Assembly (NCBI GenBank): GCA_964019415.1
Contig: OZ025887.1
Coordinates: 1,557,306-1,621,305, forward strand
DNA from: Ianthella basta
Lineage: Eukaryota; Porifera; Demospongiae; Verongiida; Ianthellidae
Direction of reading: 5' to 3'
DNA length: 64,000 bases
Shown here: piece after piece, positions 34,258-63,325 of the stretch
How positions within the stretch are numbered: the stretch's first letter is position 1
Layout of the letters: every line of letters starts with the position of its first letter
Notes under the pieces: generated by a model
Database searches by the model: none
Told to the model about the DNA's origin: nothing
The model's input: only the letters and a program-made list of their open reading frames with translations
Translations under genes and position numbers: made by a program

Positions 34258-34444
34258 TTTCCTGGGTTGTATTATCAAGACTTCCGGCCGCCATTTTGAA
34301 TAAGATGCTGTCAGGAAGTAGGGTGGGACGGTTAGCGCAGGGGCTCAAGAAAAGAATGTTAGTATAATATACTTTCGTCCTCTTGCTTAGCCCGTTAATT
34401 ATGAAGCTTTTGTTCCAATACTCTTTTTAATTTACAATGTGCAG
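34258..34444. promoter_or_regulatory. 187-bp divergent promoter region, SLC30A6 / BBOX1-like
   Basis: The interval between opposed start codons contains CCGGCCGCCATTTTG. A second CAGCCATTTTC spans the SLC30A6 ATG. Both resemble YY1-type initiator sites (GCCGCCAT). The function is inferred from position. A pyrimidine run ending GTGCAG sits directly before the BBOX1-like ATG and could be a 3' splice site for an upstream exon. Confidence 0.5.
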
Positions 34445-42100: not shown

Positions 42101-45100
42101 GTTGATTGCCGTGTCGTGTTCATCGGCTATAGTTGAGATACTTTTCGAATGCAGAATGCCAAGCTCCTGCGCCGTCTGTGGAGGTACCTCGAAGAACATG
42201 TGGAAGAAGCTGAGCTTCCATCAATTCCCCTAGGATTGACGGATGAGAGATCTGTGGCGCACATCATGGAAGCTTCCATCCGACTTTGTCATCAAAGAGC
42301 ACCATAGGGTGTGCAGCCAGCACTTCGTGTACGGCAATAAAACGGAGAGCAGCCCAACGCCCCAAGCAGATATTGGCGTACGCTTTGGATCACCGCGAAA
42401 GCAACCCGCACCGAGAAGATCATACCCTAAGAAGCGGCTGAAGGACCTCATAAAGGAAGAATGCGTTCAGATCACAAAGGAAGAGGTTAATTGGACAGGT
42501 ATTGCGAAGAAGCCATTGTATCCCCCTAATATCTAACAACAGAAAGTTTCACAAAAATATAATCACAAAATTCCTAAGGCAAGGTGTATTCACAAAATAT
42601 GCATCTTCCAAAAATTTGTATGCAAATGATATGTGCATGCGCTTCTAGTCTAGCTTGCTAGACCCTCTCTCAGTGCTGGAGTAGGCATGACAATCTTGTG
42701 GCTTCCTTCTCTGAGACCTTAGTGTGATTTAGACCAGTGACCTCCATTGTACAACAACCCTTCATGTACGATATGTCGATGACTGGTTGACGATTCGCGT
42801 TCACTGACAGCGTGCCAAGACTGATATCATTATTAAGAACACGTGCATAAGACAAAGACCATTGTTACAGGAATAGTAACTACAAACAGAATAGATAGCA
42901 TTTAACACAACCATAATAGTAAAGGACTATATCTAGTAACAATTAGTGGTTGGCAGTGTCTAGGTGGTAATAACTACCAGTATGCCACATCTCCCTTCTT
43001 CTAGTATGTGAGTCTGGAGGTAGTACCGCCATGTACTCCGGTTTGTGAGCATGTGGCAATGGTACGTCTTTGCTTGTTCTCCGGGGTTGTCTGAGTTGAG
43101 TCTTCTTCGAGTCGTCTTGAAAGATGACTCTGATTTCTCCGAACTGTACCAGATGGGTTTTCCACAAGGTAAGACCTGGGAGTATCAGCTGACTGAATCA
43201 CTCTTCCAGGATCTGGTCGGTCTCGGGTGCGAACCCAGACTGCCTGGTTGTCGGGTAGTGGCGATACAGATCTGGCTCTGTGGCGGCGATCGTAGCCTGC
43301 CTTCTGCTTTCTCTTCTGCTCTGCATCTTTCTGCCAAAAGCTGGTGAGATAAGGCCATTCCGGTATCAAGGTACTTGGGACTTGAGGAATGTCTGTCCTC
43401 AGTGGTCTGCCCATCAACAGCTGTGCAGGACTGAGTCCACACCAGGGCAGTGGAGTTGTTCTGTAGGCAAGTAGTGCCAGGTAGGGATTTGCTGGCTTGT
43501 CAAGGAGGCTCTTGGCAGTCTTCACCATCCTCTCGGCCCTGCCATTACTTTGGGGGTAATGGGGGCTGCTGGTGACTTGCTGGAAGTTGTACTCTTTCGC
43601 AAAGTCCTTCATCTCTTGGGATGAGTACTTGGGAACCGTTGTCACTTAGTAGCACTGCAGGTATGCCATGTCATGGCTTTGAGGCACGAATCACACTGGC
43701 TGAGGTGGTGGTTGTCAGTGTCTGGACCTCCAGATAGCGAGAGAAATAATCAGCGACCAGTAGGTAAGTTTTCCCATGAAGCTCAAACAAATCTGAGGCT
43801 ACCTTCTCCCATGGATGGTTTGGAAGTGGCGAGGATATCATAGGCTGTCTGTGAGCTACACTTGCCTGGGTGCAGGCTGGGCAACTCTTGACTAGCTGCT
43901 CCACCTGTTGTTTGACGCCAGACCACCAGACAGCAGAGGAAACACACAGGTGACATCGCAGAATTCCTTGATATCCGCTGTGAATTTTGCTCAGTGTTTC
44001 CTGCTGCAAGCTTCTTGGCATCACAATACGATGACCTCGGAGGAGTAGATCATGATGGAGGGAGAGTTCCCCTCTCACAGGCCAGTACTGCAAAAGATCT
44101 CCCGTGAGTTGACCTTTGTTTGCCCATCCATTCTTGCAGAATGAGATAAGTTGGGAACAAATGCTGTCTTCCTGCTGCGCTGTCCGATAATCGTGCAGAC
44201 GGTCAGAGTTTGCTGGGAGGTAAGAGGCAATGGCATGCACAAACGTCTCTGTCTGTGCAGCTTCCCAGGTGTGAGTGGCATCTGGGGAGGCAACTGGGGC
44301 ACGGGAAAGGGTATCTGCTGTGTACAAATGCTTACCGGGGACATGGCTGATGGCATAGTCAAAGCGCATGAGGCGGATCCGGAAGCGGAGGACACGCGGT
44401 GGCAGGCAATCAAGGTTGGTTTTGCCGAGGAGGGGTACCACGGGCTTGTGGTCTGTCTCCAGCAATATTGCCTTGCCGATGACATAATCAGAGAACTTCT
44501 CACATGCCCACACAAGGGCAAGGGCTTCCTTCTCAATCTGTGAGTACCTCTTCTCGGTGTCTGTCATGGATCAAGAGGCAAAGGCGACAGGCTTCCACAC
44601 TCCTGATTGTTGTTGCAGGAGCACTGCCCCTAACCCATAGGCAGAGGCATCAGCAGCGATCTTGGTTGGTGCATCAAGGCTATACAGGGCCAAGGTAGTG
44701 GGTCTTGCCAGCTCGTTCTTAATTTCTTGGAAGGCGGTGGCTTGGGCGGGTCCCCACACCCATGACCTCTTGCTGCTGAGAAGCTCACGTAGGGGTTGTG
44801 AGAGCTCTGCAATTTTGGGGGTGAATTTGCCCAGTTGGTTCACCGTCTCTGTAAATCTCCTCAATTCTGTCGCGAATCACGTTGTCATTCAGTGGTCGAA
44901 AATCCACGCAAATGCGGGCTGCTCCAGACTTCTTGGGCACAACCACCATGCCCGCACACCATGGGGTTGGTTCCTCAACTGGGGAGATTACCCCAAGTGA
45001 CTCCATCCGAGCAAGCTCATCCTGCACCTTCTTCCTCAGGGGTAGAGGGACATTGCGAGGTGTAAAGAGGGCAAAGGGCTTGGCATCTGGCTTAAGCTGG

Positions 45101-47349
45101 ATTGTGTAGCTACTACCCTTGAAGGTCCCAAGGCCCTTAAAGAGAGTGGGATACTGCTCTGGAATAGGAGTGTTAACACCATCAACTTGGGCAGGTACAT
45201 GCAGGGCCTGAATGGCTGGTAGGCCTAGCAGGTTGTGTTGGAGGTGTTTCACCACAAAGATGGGCTGTGTACATTGGCGGCCTCTGTACTGTAGTGTGGC
45301 ATGGAGCTCTCCTCTGACATTGAGTGGCTTACTGTCGGGTCCATGGAGTTTCTTGGTGGGCGTCTTGACCTCACTCATGCCCAGGGATGTCCACAGGTCT
45401 TCTGAGATCACAGTTACTTCAGCGCCTATGTCCACTTTGAAGGGTACCTCATGTCCATTCACAAGCACCTTGCAGTTCCATGTAGTGGCTTGGTCTGTCC
45501 CAATGACATTGAGGAAAGCCATATCATAGTGGTCTGCTGCATCTGACTCCATGGGTGTGACTACCTCCGCAACTGACTTGCGAAAGCATTGTGCGCTGTA
45601 GTGCCCCTTCTTCTTACAGTTGTGGCACTCAGCTTCTCGGGCTGGACACTGTTGTCTTGGGTGGGGTCCTCGGCCACATCGGGAACACTTCCCTTGTGCT
45701 AGCTGCTGTTGCTTGGCAGGTGCTTGGGATCGTTTCCTTTGAGTCCCTTTTCCGTTGAACTGGGGATTTTGTCGAAGGAAATCAATCGACTTCTCTGTCT
45801 GGCCAGTCTGCAGAAGGACCTGCTGCTCCTGAACTGCTTCACGCTGTCGCACTAGCATTTTTGCCTTCTCCAGGGTCAGTTCTGCGTCCATTTGAAGCCA
45901 TGCGGACTGCAACTGATTGCGAATTCCGACAACAATTTGATTGTGAATCATCTGGTCCCTGAGATCGCCGTACTCACAGTTTTCTGCCAAGTGGTACAAC
46001 CTGGTTATGAACTGTTCCGCAGATTCACTCTCACCCTGGCAGCGACGGTCAAACCGTGCCTGCTCAAAGATGACGTTCTTCCGCACCTTGAAAAAGTCGT
46101 CAAACTGCTGGATCACCGTGCTGTACTTCTTCCGATCCGCATCAGAGATGTTAGTGGAAGTGAGGGTATCCTCTGCATATTCCCCCATGCAGTACAATAG
46201 GGTACTGACTTGTCTGTCGTCACTTTCGGCTGACAGACCGGACGCGAGGTGAAACTGCTCAAATCAGCGCTTCCACCGGGGCCATTTGTCAGGGGTCTTG
46301 AAGTCAAAAGACGGGGGAGGCTGCAGGCGGACACTAGCCATACTTCTGACACCATGTACGATATGTTGATGACCGGTTGATGATTCACGTTCACTGACAG
46401 CGTGCCAAGACTGATATCATTATTAAGAACACGTGCATAAGACAAAGACCATTGTTACAGGAATAGTAACTACAAACAGAATAGATAGCATTTAACACAA
46501 CCATAATAGTAAAGGACTATATCTAGTAACAATCAGTGGTTGGTAGTGTCTAAGTGTACTACTACCAGTATGCCACACTTCATTGAGTTTGTGTATGCAA
46601 AATCTGCTGGTGGTAAGGCTACCTTGGTGCACTCAACTTGTGTTCTCCTTCTGTTCACAGTGGTACCATCAAAGACTTATCAGCAGCAGATGTAAGTGTT
46701 TGGTGTGTGCAAAGGCTACTGATTGCCAGTTCTGTTCCTTTCAGCATGCTTTGACAGATGTACAGTTGTACTGGAAACTAGTGATGGGTAGATATCAAGT
46801 CACTCCTATCTTCCTCTATTCCTCCCCTCCTTCCTATCCCCTCTCCCTATCCATCTTCCCCTCCCTCTCCCTTTCTCTCCCTCTCCCACCCTCCCTCACT
46901 TCCTTTTCCCTTCCCTCTCCCTCTCCCTCACCCACCCTCCCCCGCTTCCTCTTCTCCCTCTCCCTTTCCCTCTCCCTCTCCCACCCTCCCCCACTTCCTC
47001 TTCTCCCTCTCCCTTTCCCTCTCGCACCCTCCCCCGCTTCCTCTTCCCTTCCCTCTCCCTCTCCCTCTCCCTCTACCTCACCCACCCTCCCCCACTTTCT
47101 CTTCTCCTCCCTCTCCCTCTCTCTCTACCACTCACCCTCCCCCACTTTTTTCTCTTCTCCTCCCTCTCCCACTCCCTCTCCTCCTCCAACCCTTCCCCGC
47201 TTCCTTTTCCCCTCCCTCTCCCTCTCCAGGTAACAGTGTTAAGGTCAGGAGAAGCAAGGCGCATTTCCTTCCTAGACATACAGGATGGCCTCTTCACCTT
47301 GAAGCCACCTCTCATAATGTTTCCTGACATGTCCCATAACAGCAACTGA
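36833..47349 (+). CDS. BRMS1/BRMS1L-like (Sds3 family) Sin3-HDAC subunit, 13 exons
   Basis: Sds3/BRMS1 proteins are coiled-coil subunits of nuclear Sin3-HDAC repressor complexes. Exons: 36833-36965, 37028-37133, 37227-37282, 37536-37607, 37695-37714, 38826-38982, 39219-39302, 39489-39559, 39670-39703, 40777-40886, 41711-41757, 46661-46691, 47230-47349; 1041 nt, 346 aa. Features in order: Ser/Glu-rich acidic N-terminus; YLEDMGCLEKYFSDLKE; a long coiled coil including APEYLEPLQELEE and EKIRRLMEEK; a basic KKRKPS stretch; YVVYMLKDIDILEDI, typical of BRMS1L; and a C-terminal beta domain ending DIQDGLFTLKPP. Exon 5 is a 20-nt microexon. Every junction keeps phase. Exons 7-8 were joined as GT-AG (39302/39489). 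Intron 10 begins with a repeat that copies the end of exon 10. Intron 11 (41758-46660) hosts a THAP relic and a retroelement. Confidence 0.88.
37975..38195. repeat. Inverted repeat of about 105-bp arms with hammerhead-like cores
   Basis: The left arm (about 37980-38085) and right arm (about 38095-38195) are diverged reverse complements around GCATACAAAA/TTTTGTATGC. On the minus strand the left arm reads GTGATGAAGGCC, TATGT, GGCTGAAAC; the right arm reads CTGACAAAGGCG, TACGT, GGCCAAAAC. It lies in BRMS1-like intron 5. Confidence 0.75.
38700..38800. mobile_element. TACG microsatellite and AT-rich miniature element fragment
   Basis: (TACG)n at about 38700-38719 is followed by TTAAGGCTACTTATTTTAAC and GGTACTAATTTTAGCAAATT. 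These match the termini of the elements at 54405-54650 and 33140-33300. Confidence 0.55.
39076..39166. repeat. (CA)n microsatellite
   Basis: CA array in BRMS1-like intron 6, about 50 bp upstream of the exon 7 acceptor. Confidence 0.95.
40366..40682. mobile_element. hAT-like MITE, non-coding
   Basis: The ends TAGGGCTGGAACGAAGCTTC and (inverted) GTTCCAGCCCTA bracket about 317 bp in BRMS1-like intron 9, with further internal inverted CGAAGC/GCTTCG words. The GGGCTGGAAC ending is typical of hAT termini. A convincing 8-bp target duplication was not found. A similar GTCCCAGCCCTA end occurs at 1272-1283. Confidence 0.6.
40865..41320. repeat. 107/108-bp tandem repeat that starts inside exon 10
   Basis: The unit starts CTGCTGTAATGGACAGTGG. 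It begins at 40865, inside BRMS1-like exon 10, and recurs at 40973, 41081, 41188 and 41295. Each of the next three copies repeats the last codons of exon 10 and the GTGGTGGGTGCTTGT donor context. Half-units (AATGGACAGTGGAGGGG) also recur. Confidence 0.92.
41613..41675. repeat. (CA)n microsatellite
   Basis: CA array with GC interruptions, about 35 bp upstream of the exon 11 acceptor of the BRMS1-like gene. Confidence 0.95.
42156..42536 (+). pseudogene. THAP-domain gene relic with two in-frame stops
   Basis: The frame from ATG 42156 gives a C2CH zinc-finger start (SSCAVCGG, then SFHQFP). It is broken by TAG (42231) and TGA (42237), then continues with RMRDLWRTSW, a VCSQHF motif and a basic tail. 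Order and spacing match the THAP DNA-binding domain found in host factors and P-element-type transposases. No transposase domain follows. It lies in sense orientation in BRMS1-like intron 11. Confidence 0.7.
42765..42989 (-). repeat. 3' LTR of the Ty3/gypsy element
   Basis: 225 bp; direct repeat of 46355-46577, with TG...CA ends on the minus strand. Confidence 0.93.
43001..44865 (-). pseudogene. RNase H-integrase region with stops and frameshift
   Basis: From 44865: RT connection (KFTPKIAELSQPL), RNase H (DASAYGLGAVLLQ, then TDTEKRYSQIEKE after a TGA near 44568), HHCC-type zinc region (SCPACTQ) and integrase core (DLFELHGKTYLLVADYFSRY, then PHYPQSNGRAERMVK). A frameshift lies near 43650-43670, within the core before its second acidic residue. 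The C-terminal frame ends at 43001, close to the polypurine tract. Not functional as read. Confidence 0.85.
44866..46341 (-). pseudogene. Defective gag-protease-RT(N-terminal) region
   Basis: Reading starts at ATG 46341, meets TGA near 46263, then stays open. It shows a capsid-like segment, two CCHC zinc knuckles (CSRCGRGPHPRQQC and CHNCKKKGHYSAQC), a retropepsin-like site with DIGAEV, and the RT N-terminus (PWCAGMVVVPKKSG, VDFRPLND). The RT palm with its catalytic aspartates is absent: the frame breaks at about 44866 and resumes in the RT-RNase H connection. Confidence 0.85.
46355..46577 (-). repeat. 5' LTR of the Ty3/gypsy element
   Basis: 223 bp; pairs with the left LTR and is followed (minus sense) by the primer-binding-like TGGTGTCAG. 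Confidence 0.93.
46795..47229. repeat. CCCTCTCC-type pyrimidine tract ending at an acceptor
   Basis: About 430 bp of nearly pure C/T fills most of BRMS1-like intron 12 and runs directly into the CAG acceptor of exon 13. Confidence 0.92.
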
Positions 47350-50300: not shown

Positions 50301-50436
50301 CTAGATTGTACCAGGTATACACCCTGGCTTAGCATCTCCATGGACTGCACGTATGCTGCATAATTAATCCACTACATGTGCACTATGTGTACAAGCCTAC
50401 TCAGATAAGTGCATGCATAATTGTGTGTGCCACACA

Positions 50437-50440
50437 CATG

Positions 50441-50530
<90 letters not shown>
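50437..50530. repeat. (CA)n microsatellite
   Basis: Nearly pure CA array. Confidence 0.97.
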
Positions 50531-51226: not shown

Positions 51227-52951
51227 TTAAAACCTAAAGGATGAGCTTTTGTACTGCTCCCTATTCTTCAGCTTCTCGTCACGCATAGCCGGGATGAGGC
51301 CCTTCTCAAAGGCAATCTGGAGGGTTTCATCTGCTGTTGTGATGTGAGGATACTGACGCAGTGCCCACTTGATGTAGACAAGGAACTCATTCCAGTCCAC
51401 GAGACCATCGGCATCCATGTCGATTGCTTTGAAGGCCAACCGTGTGTCCACGCATCTGTAGCAGCCAAAGTATGGCTGCATGAAGCCGTGGTAGAAGGAG
51501 TCAAACTGCAGGCAGTTGTCCTTCTTCCTCTCCTGCGAATCCCACTCGTCCCACTCACGTTTGATGTCATCGATGATTCCCTGGTGGTGGTCCTGGGTGA
51601 GCTTTGCATTTGCAATAACCTCACTCATTGCAGTAGTGAGCTTGCCTCCAGATCGATCGAAAAGAATGGCTAGGCCAACTTTGCTCATGTACTCCTCCTT
51701 TCTGCCCTCGCGAAGATCTTCCAGCATCTTCTCCTTCATTTCCTGGAGGACTTTGGCGTCTTTGAACTCCTCGTGTTCGCCAAACAGGTTGATCAGTCTG
51801 TCCCTAAGCATATCGACAGTAGCCAGGGTAGTGATGCGAATGGGTGCCTCCACTCCAAAGAAATCGGCTACATCAAAATCTCCTATGCCCAGGAAACCAA
51901 ACACCAAATCGCAGGCCCGTGCACCATAAATTGGCTGTTTTGGATGGGGCTCCTTTCCCGTCGTCAGCTTGGTGATTTCATATGCAGCGCTCCTCAGGTG
52001 CTTGCAGTTGTACGTCTGCTGAACCTTCTCATTCCCCATGCGAATCAGGTTCATCATGGTGACGGAGGAGCAAGCATGCCCCAAGGCAGCACCTTCCTCA
52101 CACAGGCTGGCCCACACTCCGTCTGCTCCAGCACTCAGACAGTCCAGCTGTGAAGCAGTCTGCAGATCCCACTTCTGGTGAATGTGCACAAGCAGCTTCC
52201 CCGAGCTCCAGCCGTTGGAATCCATGGTCCTGCGAATGCTGGCTGTCCATGCCTCCAGCTCTTCAGGAAGAAACTCTCCAAATGGATCTTCAAAGCAAAG
52301 GGCGAACATGCGGTGTTCTTCTGGCAGTCGTGCCAGGAAAGTGACGATCTCCAGCACGCGTTCAGGAACATCCGTCATAGCCACAGGTAAATCACGCATG
52401 TTGAGAAGGATGCGAGCGTCTTTGGATATGTTCTCTTTCACCCACTTGATCCACTTCAGGATAAGCATGCACATGTCGTTCACTGTGAACTTCTCTCCCC
52501 ACTTGATATCTTTGCTGGCGAAGTCCGCCTCGAAGAATGTATTGGCCAAACCATACTTCTTGTTCTTCCGCAAGGAGACGGGGACGGACTCCGTGTCGTA
52601 CGCTCCGTCTTTGATGCCTTCGGTCACTTCGGAGAAGGAGTACAGCCGGCTGCGATCTTCACCCGAGTCGACCAACCATTGACAAAACTCATCGTCCACG
52701 CGGGTCATGTGGGAGAACGAAGCAACAATGATGTCCTTTATTCCGCACTTCTTGACGTGCTGAAAGATCTTCTTCTTGTTCTCCATTGTGTGGCTGCGCA
52801 GCTGACCGACGGTGCTCTCGCGGATGGAGTTGTCGAGCACGAAGAAGTCCATATTTTTCAGTCTCTCTCGCTTCTGCACTCGCACCGCCTCGATGTCTGC
52901 TCGCATGCGGGCGACTTCATCTCGCACAACCTTGGTATCTGCACCGCTCAT
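51227..52951 (-). CDS. DRE-TIM (HMG-CoA lyase-like) barrel-EF-hand protein A, intronless
   Basis: A single 574-codon frame from ATG 52951 to TAA. Residues about 34-310 resemble the HMG-CoA lyase/isopropylmalate synthase barrel. FFVLDNSIRESTVGQL (36-51) sits where these enzymes have RDGxQ; IKDIIVASFS (71-80) follows. HIH (256-258) aligns with the metal-binding HxH, and GADGVWASL (275-283) with the downstream strand and loop. The RDG motif reads RES here, so ordinary lyase activity is doubtful. The C-terminus has a degenerate EF-hand (about 465-490) and a canonical loop DMDADGLVDWNE (511-522), implying calcium binding. A paralogue in opposite orientation lies at 61598-63325. Lack of introns is striking beside the multi-exon genes here. 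The fold call is from remembered motifs. No function is assigned. Confidence 0.75.
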   Translation of the reverse strand: MSGADTKVVRDEVARMRADIEAVRVQKRERLKNMDFFVLDNSIRESTVGQLRSHTMENKKKIFQHVKKCGIKDIIVASFSHMTRVDDEFCQWLVDSGEDRSRLYSFSEVTEGIKDGAYDTESVPVSLRKNKKYGLANTFFEADFASKDIKWGEKFTVNDMCMLILKWIKWVKENISKDARILLNMRDLPVAMTDVPERVLEIVTFLARLPEEHRMFALCFEDPFGEFLPEELEAWTASIRRTMDSNGWSSGKLLVHIHQKWDLQTASQLDCLSAGADGVWASLCEEGAALGHACSSVTMMNLIRMGNEKVQQTYNCKHLRSAAYEITKLTTGKEPHPKQPIYGARACDLVFGFLGIGDFDVADFFGVEAPIRITTLATVDMLRDRLINLFGEHEEFKDAKVLQEMKEKMLEDLREGRKEEYMSKVGLAILFDRSGGKLTTAMSEVIANAKLTQDHHQGIIDDIKREWDEWDSQERKKDNCLQFDSFYHGFMQPYFGCYRCVDTRLAFKAIDMDADGLVDWNEFLVYIKWALRQYPHITTADETLQIAFEKGLIPAMRDEKLKNREQYKSSSFRF

Positions 52952-52993
52952 CGTCAGTCCTGCCCCGAAGACTCAGAAAGCGACTAGAGCCAC

Positions 52994-53003
52994 TCTTTTA
53001 AGC
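52994..53003 (-). promoter_or_regulatory. TATA-like element upstream of gene A
   Basis: GCTTAAAAG on the minus strand lies about 45 bp upstream of ATG 52951. Position is compatible with a TATA box and a very short leader; weak evidence. Confidence 0.3.
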
Positions 53004-53231
53004 AATTCGCTATTAGACACTCGGAAGCCTGAACAACAAGGCGGTAACGGCTGACTTTCCGTTTTAATTTATGCGGTGAAGCGCATAGCAAGACAAATCT
53101 ATTAGTGGTTGTGGTGACCTGAAGCACACGTTGACTGTAACACTGAACTAGAACATGTACTTGGACATTGTTATGATTACACTTGTTGATCGTGTTGCCT
53201 GCAGTGCTTAGAACATTGGTGCCAGCTGCTG

Positions 53232-53325
53232 TGTATTCAATCAATCAATCGATCAATCATTATTTAAGTGCACCATGCCCATTGGCACTAGGGCACAGAT
53301 TGGCCCCATGCAGCACTTACACATA
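53232..53325 (-). mobile_element. LINE 3'-end fragment with (TGAT)n tail
   Basis: TTAAGTGCACCATG...ACTAGGGCACAG...GGCCCCATGCAGCACT matches the extreme 3' end of the LINE at 57065-58946 (minus strand). It ends in (TGAT)n/(TGAA)n repeats instead of (TAA)n. 5'-truncated remnant. Confidence 0.65.
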
Positions 53326-54404
53326 ACAGGCAAAATGAATACTCATGGACCTGCAGTGGTGTGTTTAAGTTGAAAGCACTTGGTGTCAAGGCCCATTTCC
53401 CTGTCAATGAATTATTGGTGACCATTTGAGCGGGGCTCCTCTAGAATACGACAGTGGTGGTCTCGGTGTCACAAGGAATCTGGGTCCCCGATTTTTGTTC
53501 CCCGTATATATACAATATACAATATTCCCTAGTAAAAATATAGGTACTTTATAAACCAACACCCTGGATGACCATACCCCTTATGGTAAGCACTCCCTTG
53601 ACTGTTGCCTATATAATCACAACATTATAACTTTAAGGGCCATGTTGTATGACAAGTAATGGGTGTTGCATAAGAGTTTGGGATGTGGTAAGGACCATGT
53701 GGGGAAAAGTAATTACCCACAATTATTGTTTGGCTGAGGGGGCAAATGTAACTGGTTCTTTACATGCAACCCATTAATTACTGCCCATGTATAGCAGCTC
53801 CGATTCCTTCAGACAAAATCATACAACCACCCTTTGCCATGCACTTCTTCTCAGCACTTCTTTTCAAGTTCAGCACCATTGTGTATCCTGCTGAGCCCGT
53901 GTGGCTGCTGGAGCTGCTTGTGACATGCACCACCCTAACATACACATTAGGTCACACTTCCACTGGTTGCATATACTTAACTAATGGTATTACACTTACT
54001 ACAAAAGCCTGGAGCTTCTAACCACTGCGCAGGCACCCCACATGGTTGAGATAACCGCATTTATACTAGTGCAAACACCATCTATCCCTGTTATTCTTTA
54101 TAGTGAATTTTGTAGTGCATTGTGTATCCCCCTACATTACAATCCCTGACATGGATGCCATATCCCCCAGGTGCCATGGTAAATACTATGTAATACTAGA
54201 ATGCTGCCTATACTTGCAGACTCCACAGGACAGTGTTGTGGTGCAACAAGCACAACTTTATAATGTATGTACATGTCAAAAATGAAACACAAACAGTCCA
54301 TTAATAATCTTTGGAGGTAGAAGACAGTGCCACATAATATGAATATGTAGTCCATTTGTTCATATGATGTTATTCCAAACACCTGTAGCTGTAGCATGTT
54401 GAAA

Positions 54405-54650
54405 TCATGTTTGTAGCTACCGTAATTTAAAACTACAAATTTTAACAGCAACTTAAATTTCGCATTTTGATATGTCCTAGATTGGACGAGTATTAATTTA
54501 GTGATTTTCCAGTTGTATCTGTGTAGCTATAAGACTTTTTTCACCTGCAAACACTTTTGGGTACAACTTTTAGCAAGTTTTGCACTACTCACTGAATTCA
54601 CTAAATTAGTACCTGTTAAAATTAGTAGCCTTAAACTTATGCAAACTTAG
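54405..54650. mobile_element. AT-rich miniature inverted-repeat element
   Basis: CTACAAATTTTAACAGCAAC near the left end is mirrored at the right by the complement of GGCTACTAATTTTAACAGGT. Internal sequence aligns with 33160-33290. Non-coding. Next to it, TTAGTCAGGCGT (about 54647) and ACGCCTGACTAA (about 54700) form a further inverted pair. Confidence 0.6.
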
Positions 54651-55489
54651 TCAGGCGTTGCGTGACCCATCTGTGCACGGGGAGGGCCACGTCATGAGAC
54701 GCCTGACTAATGCAAACTTTCGTCACTTGCATTTGTTTCTTGTACAAAAGTACACAATGTAACAAGAAACAAGTACAAAATTGTACAATTGTACAACAAA
54801 CATCTACAAAATGGCTCCATAGGTGCTGGTCCGGTTCACTGCCATTTTCCCTTTCCCCCTCTTTCCTTACCATGTGTAGTTCCAAATGTTGTCTTTCATT
54901 CGTGTCACCATGGTACATAGACCGTCTTAATGAGCATTTCCGATAATGTCACTGACTAGTCAGTGCCCGTTGGTCAACTCCACCTGCACCTGTCACTGCT
55001 TTCCTGCTAACCAACATCCTGTCACCATTCATAGTCATCAAAGACCATCCACTCATCCCCTTAAACCATGTCTCTGTCAGACATACAATAGCATGTGAAA
55101 AACGTAATTACTTTTGCCTGTATATCCCTACTCTTCACCACTCTCCACCACTCAATCTGTCACCTCCATTCCATCTCCTCCCAACTCTTCTTGAAAACCC
55201 TACTACGGCAACTCATAATATTGAATTTCATGACCTCAAACTCACCCCATTCACACTGTCAGATTCCACATTAACACACTCCCACTGCATGCCCTCCCCC
55301 CTTCCAGCTGTGCCACTGCCCGTACTGCCTCCCACCCCCTTGTTAACTACACAGAACTCACACTATCAGTGACTGTAAAAAAGGTGATTTCAATTTTCCA
55401 GAGTTCCCCTAAAGCTACCTCTTACTGATATTGTAGCCTGGTTAGGTTTAAGATCAAAGGGTCTGTCTAGTTGAGATATCCTGTATCCA

Positions 55490-55555
55490 ACCACATCCTG
55501 GGTGTTATTCTTCATAACACCTAGGTGTTATGAAGAATAACACCCAGGATGTGGT
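55490..55555. repeat. Perfect 66-bp palindrome without spacer
   Basis: The sequence from ACCACATCCTGGGTG to CACCCAGGATGTGGT is exactly its own reverse complement, centred on CCTAGG at 55520-55525. Such loop-free palindromes are usually unstable. Confidence 0.97.
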
Positions 55556-55603
55556 CACTGAACAACTGTCACCCCACTAATTGAAACAACATTCTCTATT
55601 ATA

Positions 55604-55606
55604 TGC

Positions 55607-55654
<48 letters not shown>

Positions 55655-55710
55655 ATGCGTGTGCATGTGTGTGTGTGCATGCGTGTGCATGTGTGTGTGT
55701 GTGTGCACGC
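55604..55710. repeat. (GT)n microsatellite with GCATGC interruptions
   Basis: GT array ending in alternating GCATGCGTGTGCATGTGTGT blocks. Confidence 0.95.
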
Positions 55711-55789
55711 ATCAATATGTGTTACTGTCTGCAGTGGCATGTAGCCTGCTGTTTCATATGAATGCTGAGTACACGGTGCAATATGTATG

Positions 55790-56107
55790 TCAGTTAGATA
55801 GTGATATCGAACTTCCAGGGCTCCTTCTCGGTCCATGAAGTTGGGGCAATGTCGATCGCAATTCTTGGCGAAAGCCCAGACAATTGGCGATTGTGGTGGG
55901 TGGATACGGATCTCCGTCTGCTCTCCTAGCCTCCACTACAAAACGAGCAAGCCACAGATTCAGCAGCAGGGCGCTCAAGGAGGCCTGGGGGTACCTTTCG
56001 CTGCGGCGCTTGTTACGTTCTTCCCGCCACTCGTCCAGAGCGCGAGCTGCTCAGTTGGTCGCTCTCACTGTGGTCGGCGGAACGTAGCCGTTACAAATCT
56101 CAGACAT
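55790..56107 (-). pseudogene. Crypton/DUF3504-like tyrosine recombinase fragment with a stop
   Basis: From ATG 56107 the frame gives VPPTTVRATN, then TGA, AARALDEWREERN, LLNLWLARFVVEARR and DGDPYPPTTIANCLGFRQELR, ending at 55790. This order is typical of the N-terminal part of DUF3504 (Crypton-derived) proteins, in which a Trp usually stands where TGA is read. The catalytic C-terminal half is missing. Confidence 0.6.
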
Positions 56108-56235
56108 CTTGCCTGGTGACACTGGAGGGGCGAAGCGTGTCGTCGGCTGTTCTGAAAGCTGTAGATTTCTTTTTCTTCTTCGAAATCTGGGCCCGAATCA
56201 TCGCGCGAATGTTGTCTATATGGGATAGGCTACAA

Positions 56236-56382
56236 ATAGGTTAAACCCTAGCTTCTTCCGGTGTTACAGGATATCACCTCGGTGGTCAATTCATATCACC
56301 CTCGGGCCTTCGGCCCTCGGGCGATATGATTGACCACCTCGGTGATATCCTGTAACACCTAAGAAGCTAGGGTTTAACCTAT
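56236..56382. repeat. 147-bp near-perfect hairpin (foldback element)
   Basis: Arms of about 72 bp, from ATAGGTTAAACCCTAGCTTC to its complement, meet at GGGCC-TTC-GGCCC. Only a few mismatches and one 1-bp gap separate the arms. No target duplication was evident. Confidence 0.93.
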
Positions 56383-57064
56383 ACTTGAAGCAGATGTTGA
56401 CCTGGCAACTGAATGCTGACTGCTGCATTATAGGTCTGTCAGAGGCCTTCACACGATATACAGGTGACCAAAGTGAAGGATTGATGCTAGGAACACAATT
56501 TTGGCAGCAAGTAATCTAGTGACTCTCTCTCTACAGAAGTCACTAGATTACTTGCTAGAATTGAAGATAAAACTTTTGAGAAGGCAGTGTCACATAGCTT
56601 ATAAAAAGGGACAGTAAAACATTTGAAGCAGACTGGAAAGGATCCCTCTATTTATGAAACTGTTAGGCCAAGTTGCTCTACTGCAGCTCCAAATGTGCAT
56701 GTGGTCACACATCAATGAACACTTCGAGAGAGCATGGCATGCACAAACTATCTGTACCATATACGCCACTCCCAGCATGACCTTAACAGAGACCAGAACA
56801 GCAGTCAAGAGTCCTCAGGAGTGCATCACATGATGGCCAGAGCTCCTTAAGGGCTGAACAGGTAATGTAAACCATGTGGTCATGTGACAATCATGTGATT
56901 TAATAAGCATTGTGTATTGATTCTGATTATATATGTGCAAGTGGTGAATTGCTGCCCACTCTGAAAGCGTGTGTGAACAAGGAGATAATCATTTGCTGCA
57001 CAAGTTACTGTCTGCACTTGTGTGGACATAATCATATGCATTATGCTAGCTTACTCATTTGCAC

Positions 57065-58946
57065 ATACATATATTATTATTATTATTAATTAAGTGCACT
57101 GTGTTGTATAATACAAACACTAGGGTGTCAGCCCCATGCAGCACTATAATATAGTTGAATGTAACAAAGTGATAAAAGAATCACAATGGGCATAGTTCTT
57201 TAAGAGCAGCTTGTCCTTTTCTGCCACATCCTCTGCAGCGCCTTTCGCACTCTTCCATCTCTGCATGCCTCCTCCAGTACCCATATCACCCTCTCGTCGT
57301 CCTTCATGCTCTCCCATCCCACCACTATCTCTTTCATCAGCCTTGCCATTTCTCTCCTCTCTTCTGCCACAATACACTCCGGCACATAAAGTGCTTGACA
57401 TCTTCCACTTCACCATTGTCACAATTCTTACAAAGTCGTTCGCCCCTACTTAACCCACACCATCTGCCAGTTTCTACCCTTAATTCTGCTGTTCTCCCTC
57501 GTAGTCTCACCATCATCCTCCTTTGCATCTTACACTCTATCTCCACACACCGCACCTTGCATTCGCATCCATTAAACTCCCAATCACTTCCAGCTTTAGC
57601 CGTTCCCTAGCTGCTTCCCTCCATACCTCTCACACTTCCCTCCATGCTATGTCCTTCAACACCTGCTTTACTTCTTTCATTGTCAACCCACTCACGGCCT
57701 CGGCATCTAACCCCTTCCATTCGAACCTCACCAAACTTTGTTGCAGCTCTTTCACCCACCGCACTGTACACCCTACTTCCAAGGCTTCAAGCATCACAAC
57801 TTTCAATAACCTGCTATCAGTCATCCTCATTACCTGCACCCAGAACTCAATACTTCTCTTCCTTGCCACCCATTTCATTGGTAGCATGTTCATCTCAAAT
57901 TGCAGGGAGACCAAAGGGTGTAGTCTCCCCACCCCTAAAAATATTCTTGCCGCTCGCATCTGCACATTTTCAACTGGCCCGAGTTGCGCTCCACTACCCA
58001 TACCTCTGCCCCATACAACAGCACAGATTCAACAAGAGATTCCATCAGCCTCACAAAGGTAGCTCCTCTCACTTCCCCCACGGTGGCCCTGCACCTTCTG
58101 AGCTAGTCACTTAGTGCTTTTGCTCCCGCCTTTCTTCTCTCCTCCACCATTCTCGTACCTTGCAGGTGCTCATCAACCACACACCCAAGATACTTGTACT
58201 CCTGCACCACCACAATCTCTTCCCCTCCAACATGAAACTTCTCTTCCGTCCTCTTCACACCTTTCTTTCTCACATGCATTACCCCACATTTTTCCACATT
58301 CACTTCAACTGACCATTCATTACACCATTCTACTAATGTGTTCAACCCATGCTTCATAGATTTTTCATCCTCTGCAAGAATCACTGTGTCATCTGCATAC
58401 AACAACACTGAGATTAGCTGACCCCTACACTTTACCCCCACTCCTGCCTCGTTCAGCTTAGTTATCAGTGAATTGATATACAAGGAGAACAACAGTGGCG
58501 AAAGGATGCATCCCTGTCTCAACCCGCATGTTACTTTGAAAGGTTCACTTCGTCCCTCTCCCACCTTCACTTCACAACTCACATCCTCATAAACTGCCTT
58601 TAAGAAAGCTGAGAGGCGACCTCCTAACCCCATTCCCTCTAAACACCTCCACAACTTCCCTCTGTCCACCCTGTCATATGCCTTCTTAAAGTCAATAAAA
58701 CTGGCAAACATCCCTGTCTTTGTCACTGCTTTCACCTGCCCCAGTAATACCAAAGTCATTAACTGATCTCTGCACCCTCTTCCTTTTCTAAACCCTCCCT
58801 GCTCCTCTGCCACCAGCTTCCTTTCTTCAACTACATGCACCAACCTATTCTGAGCAATACTGCACATCGCCTTATAAGCAACTGGCAGTAATGAAATGCC
58901 CTGGAAATCCTCTGTCTTGCATATCCCACTTCTACTCCTCTTTGGT
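57065..58946 (-). mobile_element. 5'-truncated non-LTR retrotransposon (LINE) with reverse transcriptase
   Basis: The coding strand is minus. The first recognisable RT residues are at about 58945 (FQGISLLPVAYKAMC), then EQGGFRKGRGCRDQL, FIDFKKAYDRVDR, GLRQGCILSPLLFSLYIN and the catalytic LLYADDTVILAED. The frame breaks near 58100. Downstream parts continue in other frames (58001-57630, 57555-57337) to a C-terminal CKNC...EDVKHFMC finger. The element ends in a (TAA)n-like tail at about 57070-57090. No endonuclease domain remains. Clade not assigned. Confidence 0.88.
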
Positions 58947-59444
58947 ATGTATATATATATGTTATATACATGCATTATACACATGATAATACAATGGCTT
59001 ACATTGGTGAGTGTCGTGATTGGTGAGTGGCACATTCCTGGATCTTCTTCCCCATGCACAGTCAGTGAAGATACTGGCATCTGGAGAACTGTATAAAAAT
59101 TTCTAAAGCACAAAGGCAGAATGATTTATGCAGCATGTTATTTGTATATTTAGGCCTTTCCACTCCTTCCCACCAGTATCTCTCATTCCTCCCCATGGAC
59201 CTCAAGTTCCCCGCTGTATCCCACTCCACCATCCCTTGCTATAGGAATATTAACTGCACATGCACTCCTGCCTGGCCCTCCTTGCCTCTAATCTCCCATG
59301 TGCACTCAGTGCACCATTGCATGCACTTGCCATAGAACTATATAGTCCAGCATGATCTCCACTGTGACATCATGTACCTTTTCCATGTCCATTCCATTGT
59401 CCATGTTCCATTTCCATGTCATCATGTACCTGTTCCTGTACGCA

Positions 59445-59515
59445 GCTGACAAAGACCTTCGGGTCAAAACATCCTGCATTTGATTGATTTATCATTATCA
59501 GTTGTGTCTTGCTCA
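59445..59515 (+). other. Dispersed repeat with hammerhead-like core (copy 3)
   Basis: GCTGACAAAGACC, TTCG, GGTCAAAACATCC, followed by TTTGATTGATTT. Stem II is a perfect GACC-TTCG-GGTC hairpin, but CTGATGA has decayed to CTGACAA. Confidence 0.4.
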
Positions 59516-61492
59516 AGAATCTCGTATCATTGTATTATCAACGCAACTATGAGCCTCTACAATATCATCATGTACCTTTATTTACATTACATTGCAGGCG
59601 TACATGTATTTCATTATGAAGTGCAAGTTGCAATTATGCTATACAATGTCATTTGTATATAACATAACAGCCCCACTCTAGTGTACACGTGGAGTGTGGT
59701 GTGGAAGTCTCTGTATGTTATTTTTACCTACTAGTGTATATAAATTTCTTTAGAATTAAAAGGGATTTAGGAATGGCTGGCAGAAAAAGCATAGAAACAA
59801 GCAAGAGTAACTCAACGCCCTGATAAACCACATTTCTGTGAAGTTCGCTCTGCATTCCTAATTTCCTTGTAGCTACATAGGACTATGTAACTGCTGGACA
59901 TTTGGGTACAATTGTGCATGTGTTGTTCTATATTGTATACCTTGCACTGTTTTGTACAGCTACAGTACTGTTATTGCCCAATTGCGTATTCCAAATATGG
60001 AACAATGACATCATGCGGTTGATGGTCGTGTAGGGTGCCGAGTGCATACAGTTGTATAGGGAGAAGTACGTGGGCCTGGCAGGCAAGAATAGAATGGAAG
60101 GCATTTTGTGTACAGGACACTGAAAATGAGAAGGCATGACAGCAGATGCTGCTCACTTACTTTGGAATGAGGTAGCCTATATAGATGCTACTCAGGCATG
60201 CAGCCATATTCGTTGTAGCTATTTCATGTGTCCTTGCAGACTACCTTACGACCAGTCCAAAGTAAGTGGGCTGCATCCACTGGCATGCCTATTCCCTTTC
60301 AGCATCCTGTACACAAAATGCCCTCCATTCTGTTGTCATACCTGTAAATTGCTTGCATGCCACAATCACATATATATTATTACATATATAGACCAGTGGT
60401 CCACCTGGGCATGTCCATGCACCAAGTTGCATGGCCATGCATGCGCACCCGTTTATATTGCAATTGATACTACACCATGTATCTGTACAAATGTCCTGCA
60501 CAGTATGTGTTATGCTATGAGGATTTATATTAGCACTTGCGAGGTTCCTTGAACAAGGGGGGAGGCTTAATTAGTAAATCTGTCTGTATTAAAAGTTTAG
60601 AATCTCGCATACTTTGTCACAGCATACCAAGTGCATGCTCATGAGTGCCTCCAATCCCTTGGATAGTATTTAGATTATATTACTTATTTACTTTAGATTA
60701 GTGCAATATATATTGTTACTTGCACTGAATTTATCATTGCACAGTCATGTAAGTACATATGTATGCAATGCATGCAGTACATACTTAATACATACATATT
60801 TATTATTATGCACACCACATATATACATGCTCCCTCCACAAGCAGGCACATGCAGCAAACATAATGTACAATAACATACATGCAAGAAAGATCAAGTGAA
60901 GAATAACACCTCCATCCATGCACTCATACATGTACGCATGTCACACATTGCTTCATACCTCAGCAGCTGCCATTTCAGTGATATCAATGTTCCTTGCACT
61001 TTACTTTGAATTGGCCACTTGATATGTGTAGTGATGAGCAATACTGGGTACAATATATTAATCAAGCTCAGTTCCAATAATTATACGAATAACAGTATTG
61101 AAATTGGGAGACAACAATCACTAGAGAATAATGTCTGCATATCTGGGGTACAGTATCCACCATCACACCATCTAGATCAGGTTAGTTGATTTGTTTTAGC
61201 ACATTGCTGAAGATAGTCCAACACCTTGATTGATATTATTGCCGATTGCCGAAGATTGTTCTCAATGCAAACGATCGGCCATAATGAGCTCAATGCTGAT
61301 GACCAGTTGTGGTCTTTGATTATCCACATTGCTGAAGGTCTGTATGTTTGCATAGGGCGGGGGGCATCGTTGACACATACCAAATGCAACAATCGATGTC
61401 CTGCGCAATTTAGACCGCGTCGGACAGCTAGTGCATGACGCCGCGAGGGGGAGGAGCTTCTTGCTCTAATTAAATCACACAGACAGCTCGGT

Positions 61493-61503
61493 CGGTATTT
61501 AAA
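61493..61503 (+). promoter_or_regulatory. TATA-like element upstream of gene B
   Basis: GGTATTTAAAC lies about 100 bp upstream of ATG 61598; plausible TATA box. Confidence 0.35.
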
Positions 61504-61597
61504 CCATCTAGTAGCAATGCACTACAGTTCTTTGGGATATTACTTAGAGTGCAGAAGTCTACAATCTGTACAGGAGTCTTAGATCTTGCGACTAAGG

Positions 61598-63325
61598 ATG
61601 GGTGGTTCCCGAGCCAGCCGACCGATTCGTACTGAAACCAACCGCGTGAGTGCGGAAATCCAGAAAGCCTGGATGCAGAAGAGAGACAGACTGCAGAACA
61701 TGGACTTCTTCGTGCTGGATAACTCCATCCGCGAGAGCACCGTCGGTCAGCTACGCAGCCACACAATGGAGAACAAGAAGAAGATCTTCGAGCAGGTCAA
61801 GAAGTGCGGAATAAAGGACATCATTGTCGCTTCGTTCTCCCACATGCCTCGCATCGATGACGATTTTTGCCAATGGTTAGTTGACCAAGGCGAGGATCGC
61901 AGCTACCTATACTCCTTCTCCGAAGTGACCGAATGCCTCAGAGATGGAGCGTACGACACGGAGTCCGTGCCCGTCTCCTTGCGGAAGAACAAAAAGTATG
62001 GTCTCGCCAATACTATCTTCGAGGTGGACCTCGCCAACAAGGATTGCAAGTGGGGAGAGAAGTTCACAGTGAACGACATGTGCATGCTTATCCTGAAGTG
62101 GATCAAGTGGGTGAAGGAGAACATATCCAAAGATGCTCGCATCCTTCTCAATTTTCGCGATTTCCCTGTGGCCATGACGGACGCTCCTGAACGCGTGCTG
62201 GAGATCGTCACTTTCCTGGCACGGCTGCCAGAAGAACACCGCATGTTCGCCCTTTGCTTTGAAGATCCGTTTGGAGAGTTTCTTCCTGAAGAGTTGGGGG
62301 CATGGACTGCTAGCTTGAGAAGGACCATGGATTCCAACGGCTGGAGCTCGGGGAAACTGCTTGTCCACATTCACCAGAAGTGGGGTCTGCAGACTGCTTC
62401 ACAGCTGGACTGTTTGAGTGCTGGAGCAGATGGAGTGTGGGCCAGCCTGTGCGAAGAAGGTGCTGCCTTGGGGCATGCTTGCTCCTCCATTACCATGATG
62501 AACCTGATTCGCATGGGGAATGAGAAGGTTCAAAAGAAGTACAACTGCAAGCACCTGAGGAGCGCTGCATATGAAATCACCAAGCTGACCACGGGACAGG
62601 AACCCCATCCAAAACAGCCTGTTTATGGTGCAAGGGCTTGCGATTTGGTGTTGGGTGTAGGGGATTTTGATGTGGCCGATTTCTTTGGAGTGAAGGCACC
62701 CATTCGCATCACTACCCTGGCTACTGTCGATATGCTTAAGGAGAGACTGACTGACCTGTTTGGTGAATGCGAGCAGTTCAATGATGAAATTGCTGGCAAT
62801 ATGAAGGAGAAAATGTTGGAGGATCTTCGCGAGGGCAGAAAGGAGGAGTACATGAGCAAAGTTGGCCTAGCCATGCTCTTTGATCGATCTGGAGGCAAGC
62901 TCACTCCTGCAATGAGTGATGCAATTGCACAGATGCAGCTAACTGCACCTCACCACCAAACCATCATCAATGACATTCGAAAGCTGTGGGACCTCTGGGA
63001 TGCGCAAGAAGAGATGGTAGGAGATGAGTGCCTGCAATTTGATTCTTTCTATCATGGTTTTATGGCACCTTACTTTGGCTGCTTCCGATGCGTTGACACA
63101 CGCTTGGCATTTAAAGCAATTGACATGGATGATAATGGCCTTGTGGACTGGAAGGAGTTCCTTGTCTACATCAAATGGGCACTGTATGAATATCCGGAGA
63201 TCACAACAGCCGATGAAGCCATGTCAGTTGCCTTTGAGAAAGGCCTCATTCCTGCTATGCGTGACGAGAAGCTCAGGAACAAGGAAGCATACACGAGCTC
63301 ATCTTTTCGGTTCTCAAGCAGCTGA
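61598..63325 (+). CDS. DRE-TIM (HMG-CoA lyase-like) barrel-EF-hand protein B, intronless
   Basis: A single 575-codon frame. The first ATG in good context is 61598 (MGGSRASR); upstream codons in the same frame begin with TTG and are not used. The protein aligns with gene A almost end to end, with small indels near residues 350 and 400 and different first 25 residues. It keeps LDNSIREST (about 40-48), HIH (about 257-259), GADGVWASLCEEGAALGHA and a canonical EF loop DMDDNGLVDWKE (about 509-520). It is in opposite orientation to gene A, start codons 8.6 kb apart, which fits an inverted duplication or independent insertions of a retrocopy. MGG at the N-terminus might allow myristoylation, but position 6 is Ala. 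Function unknown. Confidence 0.78.
   Translation: MGGSRASRPIRTETNRVSAEIQKAWMQKRDRLQNMDFFVLDNSIRESTVGQLRSHTMENKKKIFEQVKKCGIKDIIVASFSHMPRIDDDFCQWLVDQGEDRSYLYSFSEVTECLRDGAYDTESVPVSLRKNKKYGLANTIFEVDLANKDCKWGEKFTVNDMCMLILKWIKWVKENISKDARILLNFRDFPVAMTDAPERVLEIVTFLARLPEEHRMFALCFEDPFGEFLPEELGAWTASLRRTMDSNGWSSGKLLVHIHQKWGLQTASQLDCLSAGADGVWASLCEEGAALGHACSSITMMNLIRMGNEKVQKKYNCKHLRSAAYEITKLTTGQEPHPKQPVYGARACDLVLGVGDFDVADFFGVKAPIRITTLATVDMLKERLTDLFGECEQFNDEIAGNMKEKMLEDLREGRKEEYMSKVGLAMLFDRSGGKLTPAMSDAIAQMQLTAPHHQTIINDIRKLWDLWDAQEEMVGDECLQFDSFYHGFMAPYFGCFRCVDTRLAFKAIDMDDNGLVDWKEFLVYIKWALYEYPEITTADEAMSVAFEKGLIPAMRDEKLRNKEAYTSSSFRFSSS

What the first reader, a model, noticed from the sequence alone, without database searches (positions are those of the whole stretch)
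51227..63325. Divergent pair of intronless genes fusing an HMG-CoA lyase-like barrel to EF-hands
Seen: two closely similar 574/575-codon frames in opposite orientation. Each has a FFVLDNSIREST motif, an HIH motif, GADGVWASL and a canonical EF-hand loop. Known: DRE-TIM metallolyases use RDGxQ and HxH for metal and catalysis; I know of no described family that joins this barrel to EF-hands. Inference: a calcium-linked, possibly non-classical metalloenzyme or pseudoenzyme (RDG has become RES).
Basis: partly seen in the sequence, partly recalled or inferred. Interest (0 to 1): 0.75.

Follow-up and report, generated by a model that had tools for sequence, protein, structure and literature searches.

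The report
Intronless ilborin gene pair in sponge
Two neighbouring sponge genes encode ilborin, a little-studied animal protein already described in 2022 that joins a metal-enzyme-like barrel to a calcium-binding EF-hand; here it belongs to a cluster of intronless copies kept under selection, but what it catalyses is still unknown.

Summary
Two open, intronless frames (51227-52951 minus, 574 aa; 61598-63325 plus, 575 aa) are about 83% identical and transcribed away from each other. Each has a barrel related to the DRE-TIM metallolyases (profile-profile score 67.5; maximum of 100 column shuffles 23.0) and one canonical EF-hand loop. "RDG became RES" is a weak sign of a dead enzyme: Arg and an acidic residue remain, 2 of my 10 reference sequences also carry Glu there, and the paper notes the same Glu in homocitrate synthase. 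The host is most likely a demosponge. New here: 9 full-length copies in the genome (8 open), 7 of them within 60 kb, coding parts without introns, dN/dS 0.115-0.262 among those seven; His/Gly-rich tails in 5; one distant copy that lost the calcium loop but keeps the metal motif. Structure prediction failed (pLDDT 39), so fold and metal-site superposition remain untested. Best reading: a calcium-regulated, metal-dependent aldol/Claisen-type enzyme of unknown substrate.

The parts
51227..52951 (-). Ilborin copy 1, 574 aa, intronless open frame
61598..63325 (+). Ilborin copy 2, 575 aa from ATG, intronless open frame
51887..52852 (-). DRE-TIM/HMGL-like barrel region of copy 1, about residues 34-355
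   Evidence: hhalign to ten DRE-TIM sequences over 273 columns; Pfam PF00682 below cut-off
52817..52822 (-). R44-E45 of copy 1, aligned to the Arg-Asp (or Arg-Glu) of the RDG/REG motif
   Evidence: pooled reference profile; position
52178..52186 (-). H256-I-H258 of copy 1, aligned to the metal HxH
62366..62374 (+). HIH codons of copy 2
   Evidence: computed (residues 256-258 counted from base 61601)
51386..51421 (-). EF-hand loop of copy 1 (residues 511-522, DMDADGLVDWNE)
63122..63157 (+). EF-hand loop of copy 2 (DMDDNGLVDWKE)
52988..53002 (-). TATA-like block CTTAAAAGAGTGGCT upstream of copy 1; identical in L002 and L003, one base different in L004; promoter role inferred

Best explanation
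These are two members of the ilborin family in a sponge. Shown by sequence: a barrel related to DRE-TIM metallolyases (isopropylmalate/homocitrate/citramalate synthases, 4-hydroxy-2-oxovalerate aldolase, HMG-CoA lyase) with the Arg, an acidic residue at the metal Asp and the HxH kept; a C-terminal EF-hand loop with the calcium-ligand pattern; purifying selection. Inferred: the barrel binds a divalent metal through E45, H256 and H258 and, with R44, makes or breaks a carbon-carbon bond in a 2-oxo acid or acyl-CoA-type substrate; the C-terminal EF-hand module, in the position where isopropylmalate synthases carry their allosteric domain (recalled), makes the enzyme respond to cytosolic calcium. 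Substrate and direction are not determined. Roughly: ilborin membership about 0.97, working metalloenzyme about 0.6, calcium regulation of it about 0.45.
For: Ilborin identity: same architecture, length (574-613 aa in the 8 open copies; 560-610 reported) and EF-loop place (511-523 in copy 1; 514-526 reported). The published H. dujardini primers fall on copy 2 at a spacing of 537 against 543 bp and the forward-primer peptide QFNDEI is identical there. Enzyme: score 67.5, E 5e-8, 100 column shuffles reach at most 23.0; in the pooled profile R44 falls on Arg, E45 on the metal Asp, D222 on Asp; HxH aligned in 7 of 7 reference groups; Arg-Glu and HIH kept in 8 of 8 open copies, including the one at 54% identity. 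Calcium: canonical loop in 7 of 8 open copies. Selection: dN/dS 0.115-0.262 over the 21 pairs of the seven C20 copies. Literature: major protein of larval flagellated cells, transcript in structures resembling choanocyte chambers.
Against: The paper reports no measurement of activity or calcium binding ('functional studies lie ahead'), and no other paper of the library names ilborin. In the pooled alignment the Asn of the GERxGN loop is His292 here; by group it meets Asn in 4 of 7, Ile in 1, and is unaligned in 2. The N-terminal Arg-Glu aligns only in the pooled profile; 0 of 7 group alignments reached it, and no shuffle control was run for the groups, whose scores (25-41) are far lower than the pooled one. 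Pfam matches are below curated cut-offs. AlphaFold models failed (pLDDT 39 and 53). The C22 copy keeps the metal motif but has lost the calcium loop, so calcium is not needed by every member. The reverse-primer peptide KGTSFR agrees with copy 2 in only 3 of 6 residues. The His numbers printed in the paper (205, 207 beside Arg35) do not fit the spacing here (256/258 beside 44), and its supplement was not opened.
Confidence: 0.55

Rival explanations
1. Ilborin is a pseudoenzyme: the barrel survives as a scaffold and the protein serves as an abundant calcium buffer, storage or flagellum-base structural protein.
For: It is a major protein band of larval flagellated cells in H. dujardini, lies around choanocyte flagella, and one Amphimedon gene makes up about 20% of the transcripts of one cell cluster (paper); the loop Asn is His here in the pooled alignment.
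Against: Arg-Glu and HIH are kept in 8 of 8 open copies, one of them 54% identical; the barrel has a lower dN/dS than the region after it in 20 of 21 pairs of C20 copies, the other pair being zero in both; Glu in place of Asp occurs in 2 of 10 reference sequences annotated as synthases.
Confidence: 0.3
2. It is simply an HMG-CoA lyase with an EF-hand added.
For: PF00682 HMGL-like is the best Pfam hit; the paper lists HMG-CoA lyase among its HHpred hits.
Against: Of 7 reference groups the HMG-CoA lyase one scored lowest (probability 2.8; one sequence only); this genome holds separate HMGL-like matches over the Pfam cut-off on contig C18.
Confidence: 0.04
3. The copies are retrocopies or decaying duplicates with no present function.
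For: No introns in the coding part; a reverse-transcriptase frame lies between them; the genome also holds fragments and one full-length copy with a TGA.
Against: 8 of 9 full-length copies are open; the seven on C20 show dN/dS 0.115-0.262; four of them share 5' flank similarity with a TATA-like block, not expected of retrocopies; the most distant copy is uninterrupted too.
Confidence: 0.04
4. Origin: an intronless bacterial gene taken up by early animals, later amplified (compatible with the best explanation).
For: 9 of 9 full-length copies here match in one uninterrupted stretch, while this genome's HMGL-like C18 matches are exon-sized pieces; the paper reports homologues in the cyanobacteria Moorea and Okeania and none in choanoflagellates.
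Against: I found no prokaryotic, plasmid or viral-contig relative and only a chance-level phage match, though the pattern scans are weak; the paper reports a full-length relative in a labyrinthulomycete; transfer could have gone the other way.
Confidence: 0.35

Closest known systems
Ilborin (Halisarca dujardini ilborin A-D; Borisenko et al. 2022, PMC8864356)
   Same: Length, barrel plus one C-terminal EF-hand, Arg-Glu and HxH motifs, EF-loop position, several paralogues in a sponge, primer spacing and forward-primer peptide.
   Different: Here seven copies within 60 kb of one contig, intronless, five with His/Gly-rich tails, and one distant copy without a calcium loop; the words intron, exon, horizontal and histidine occur 0 times in the paper's main text.
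Homocitrate synthase / homocitrate-synthase-like (REG-type DRE-TIM)
   Same: Arg-Glu in place of Arg-Asp; HxH; best of 7 reference groups by probability and score, with one Cereibacter sequence annotated isopropylmalate/homocitrate synthase.
   Different: Remote similarity; EF-hand at the C-terminus; different loop after HxH. The NifV homocitrate synthase reference itself has RDG and scored lower.
4-hydroxy-2-oxovalerate aldolase (DmpG/MhpE)
   Same: HxH and a similar ASL...G...G loop; best NCBIfam hit of copy 1 (TIGR03217, E 0.0074, 15.5 bits against a cut-off of 286) and one of two weak PDB hits of the profile (E 0.84).
   Different: E45 for Asp, His292 for Asn, no EF-hand in the known enzymes (recalled).
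HMG-CoA lyase (HMGCL)
   Same: DRE-TIM barrel, PF00682.
   Different: Weakest reference score.

Membership tests
Ilborin | Aldolase-type barrel followed by one EF-hand, 560-610 aa | tested here: met
   574 and 575 aa; barrel by sequence profile, EF loop at residue 511 and 509
Ilborin | Arg and Glu of the N-terminal motif plus HxH | tested here: met
   R44, E45, H256, H258 in copy 1; the paper's printed residue numbers differ
Ilborin | DxDxDG-type EF loop | tested here: met
   DMDADG in copy 1; DMDDNG in copy 2, with Asn at the third ligand
Ilborin | Full-length sequence similarity to H. dujardini ilborins MT559266-MT559269 | tested here: inconclusive
   Sequences not on hand; only the two published primers could be compared. 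Best fits in the 8 open copies have 4 to 7 mismatches
Ilborin | Expression in larval flagellated cells and choanocytes | not testable with these tools
   No expression data held
DRE-TIM metallolyase superfamily | TIM-barrel fold | tested here: inconclusive
   Sequence profile supports it; AlphaFold model too poor to judge
DRE-TIM metallolyase superfamily | Arg plus Asp/Glu after strand 1 and HxH metal ligands | tested here: met
   Glu seen in 2 of 10 references; Arg-Glu aligned only with the pooled references, HxH in 7 of 7 groups
DRE-TIM metallolyase superfamily | Metal-dependent C-C bond chemistry | not testable with these tools
   Needs an assay
HMG-CoA lyase | Pfam/NCBIfam match over the curated cut-off | tested here: not met
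   PF00682 25.1 and 28.5 bits against 29; no NCBIfam match near its cut-off
EF-hand protein | Canonical 12-residue loop D-x-[DN]-x-[DN]-G...E | tested here: met
   Pfam EF-hand models below cut-off
EF-hand protein | EF-hand pair (lobe) | tested here: inconclusive

The most novel reading that the evidence does not exclude
Ilborin is a new calcium-regulated carbon-carbon lyase/synthase of early animals, and this sponge has diversified it into functional classes: standard calcium-sensing copies, copies with a His/Gly-rich metal-binding tail, and a calcium-blind isoform that keeps the active site.
Probability: 0.25. Interest if true: 0.6.

Novelty: new member of a known kind. Interest (0 to 1): 0.38.

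Why it matters
Ilborin is a major protein of sponge larval swimming cells and marks developing choanocytes (paper), yet its chemistry is unknown. The residue mapping turns a vague "energy-related barrel" into a testable metal-site prediction, and the genome survey offers natural variants (a copy without the calcium loop, copies with His-rich tails) for separating catalysis from calcium control.

Tried and rejected

Relatives outside the genome: none from genome contigs (2 scans), viral contigs (3 scans) or plasmids; phages gave one match at E 0.4, read as chance. The contig scans depend on short exact peptide patterns, so absence is weak; the cyanobacterial homologues named in the paper were not recovered. 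PHROGs gave one match at E 0.062 for copy 1 and none for the C22 copy, read as chance; PDB sequence searches gave nothing better than E 0.076.

Primer test: neither primer matches the window within 3 mismatches. The forward primer genome-wide gave 13 places at 3 mismatches, none at an ilborin copy, against 15 for the backward control, so uninformative; the reverse primer was not searched genome-wide. This suggests that the genome is not H. dujardini. The Halisarca caerulea assembly (195.70 Mb, mtDNA 19.15 kb; start of abstract in a search listing) does not fit this genome (209.1 Mb, 21.2 kb) either. A search for a matching genome note found nothing.

Papers: the ilborin paper was read in parts 1-5 of 7 plus a term search; its supplement was not opened. 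'ilborin' is in 1 paper of the library, and the two Amphimedon gene numbers only in that same paper. Other papers were seen only as search listings with starts of abstracts; the first search found no paper.
Full report
WHAT WAS CHECKED. The two frames are real: 51227-52951 on the minus strand (574 aa) and 61598-63325 on the plus strand from ATG (575 aa). They are transcribed away from each other, the proteins are about 83% identical, and the DNA pairs as inverted repeats, the longest 1024 nt at 90%.

WHERE IT COMES FROM. The window lies on contig C20 of a 209,087,449-base, 96-contig genome. Contig C96 (21,233 bases) carries COX1 with nine in-frame TGA, cytochrome b and an ATP synthase subunit c gene (Pfam hits; frames read by table 4). 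A mitochondrial atp9 in an animal-type mitochondrial genome points to a sponge, most likely a demosponge (recalled knowledge, not a test). The species was not identified.

THE BARREL. Pfam HMGL-like matches 8 of 8 open copies at E up to 0.01, but both window copies stay below the curated cut-off. A profile of the eight open copies aligns with ten DRE-TIM reference sequences (E. coli LeuA and MhpE, and plasmid-borne NifV, two CimA, two DmpG, an HMG-CoA lyase, an IPMS and an isopropylmalate/homocitrate synthase, named as annotated) over 273 columns, E 5e-8, probability 94.8, score 67.5; the reversed profile gives probability 0.1, score 14.6, and 100 column shuffles reach at most 23.0. In the pooled alignment R44 falls on the Arg, E45 on the Asp, D222 on an Asp, H256 and H258 on HxH, H292 on the Asn of the following loop. 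In seven separate group comparisons (scores 25 to 41; no shuffle control for these) HxH aligned in 7 of 7 and D222 with Asp in 5 of 7; H292 met Asn in 4 and Ile in 1; R44/E45 was reached in 0 of 7, the local alignments starting later. [quoted passage not shown] So RES is not by itself a mark of a dead enzyme.

THE EF-HAND. Each window copy has one canonical loop. Seven of eight open copies match the EF-hand pattern; the C22 copy does not; likewise 7 of 8 match Pfam EF-hand_8 at E up to 0.01, below its curated cut-off in the window copies. Of 10000 shuffles of copy 1, 41 match the pattern. A second, paired EF-hand is not established.

IT IS ILBORIN. Literature searches with domain names returned Borisenko et al. 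2022 (PMC8864356), read in parts 1-5 of 7. It describes ilborin: aldolase-type barrel plus a C-terminal EF-hand, 569-586 aa in H. dujardini, four paralogues, relatives in sponges, cnidarians, ctenophores, one flatworm and echinoderms, plus two cyanobacteria and a labyrinthulomycete. [quoted passage not shown] A direct link: the published primers fall on copy 2 with 5 and 6 mismatches, 537 bp apart against 543; the forward-primer peptide QFNDEI is identical, the reverse one agrees in 3 of 6 residues. This check was made after the fact and no chance level was computed. One disagreement with the paper stays open: it numbers the His pair 205/207 with Arg35, whereas here the Arg-to-His distance is 212 residues.

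WHAT IS NEW HERE. The genome search gave 13 matches (only the best candidates are scored, so a lower bound): nine full-length copies (seven on C20 within 60 kb, one on C19 with a TGA, one on C22 at 56% identity) and four rows of fragments. Eight of nine are open and 9 of 9 match in one uninterrupted stretch, although this genome's HMGL-like C18 matches are exon-sized pieces. Introns in untranslated parts cannot be seen. Among the seven C20 copies dN/dS is 0.115-0.262 in all 21 pairs (Nei-Gojobori); in the seven pairs with C22, dS is 2.1 or more or saturated. The region between barrel and EF part is less constrained (up to 0.64 in one pair). Five of eight open copies have a His/Gly-rich tail (7 to 15 His), absent from both window copies and C22. 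Copies win1, L002, L003 and L004 share 5' flank similarity with a TATA-like block; L005 and L006 share another stretch. The words intron, exon, horizontal and histidine occur 0 times in the paper's main text.

HOW IT MOST LIKELY WORKS. Inferred: a divalent metal held by E45, H256 and H258, with R44, polarises a 2-oxo acid or acyl-CoA-type substrate for C-C bond making or breaking, and the EF-hand adjusts this to calcium. The rival of a non-catalytic, abundant calcium-binding protein is not excluded. No call tests activity, metal or calcium binding.

VERDICT. These are new members of a known, poorly understood family, with genomic features that I did not find mentioned in the parts of the paper that I read.

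Noticed in passing
window 29521-33090: A 3.6 kb minisatellite, 37-base unit, about 96 copies, 97% matches.
   Followed up: no
window 23460-24617: 385-aa open frame with a Cupin_8/JmjC-type hydroxylase domain (PF13621 E 3e-30).
   Followed up: no
window 34391-36386: GBBH-like N-terminal match (34391-34948) and TauD dioxygenase match (35187-36386) in neighbouring frames: probably one gamma-butyrobetaine/trimethyllysine hydroxylase-type gene with an intron (inferred).
   Followed up: partly
window 43671-46197: Minus-strand retroelement pieces: aspartyl protease, RNase H and integrase H2C2 matches; described only.
   Followed up: no
window 58103-59113: Reverse-transcriptase frame (PF00078 E 4e-38) between the two ilborin copies.
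   Followed up: no
G000 C20 copies L002-L006: Five ilborin copies end in a His/Gly-rich tail of variable length, 7 to 15 His, like a slipping repeat.
   Followed up: partly
L009:4396-6120: Distant ilborin copy on C22 keeps Arg-Glu and HIH but its EF loop reads NAVHDSGMDWEE, without the usual calcium-ligand pattern.
   Followed up: partly
G000 C18, about 2.84 and 2.89 Mb (L015, L016): Two HMGL-like exon-sized matches about 58 kb apart, over the Pfam cut-off: possibly a duplicated HMG-CoA lyase gene.
   Followed up: no
window 50431-50530 and 55608-55705: CA and TG dinucleotide tracts, complementary to each other, about 5 kb apart on either side of copy 1.
   Followed up: no
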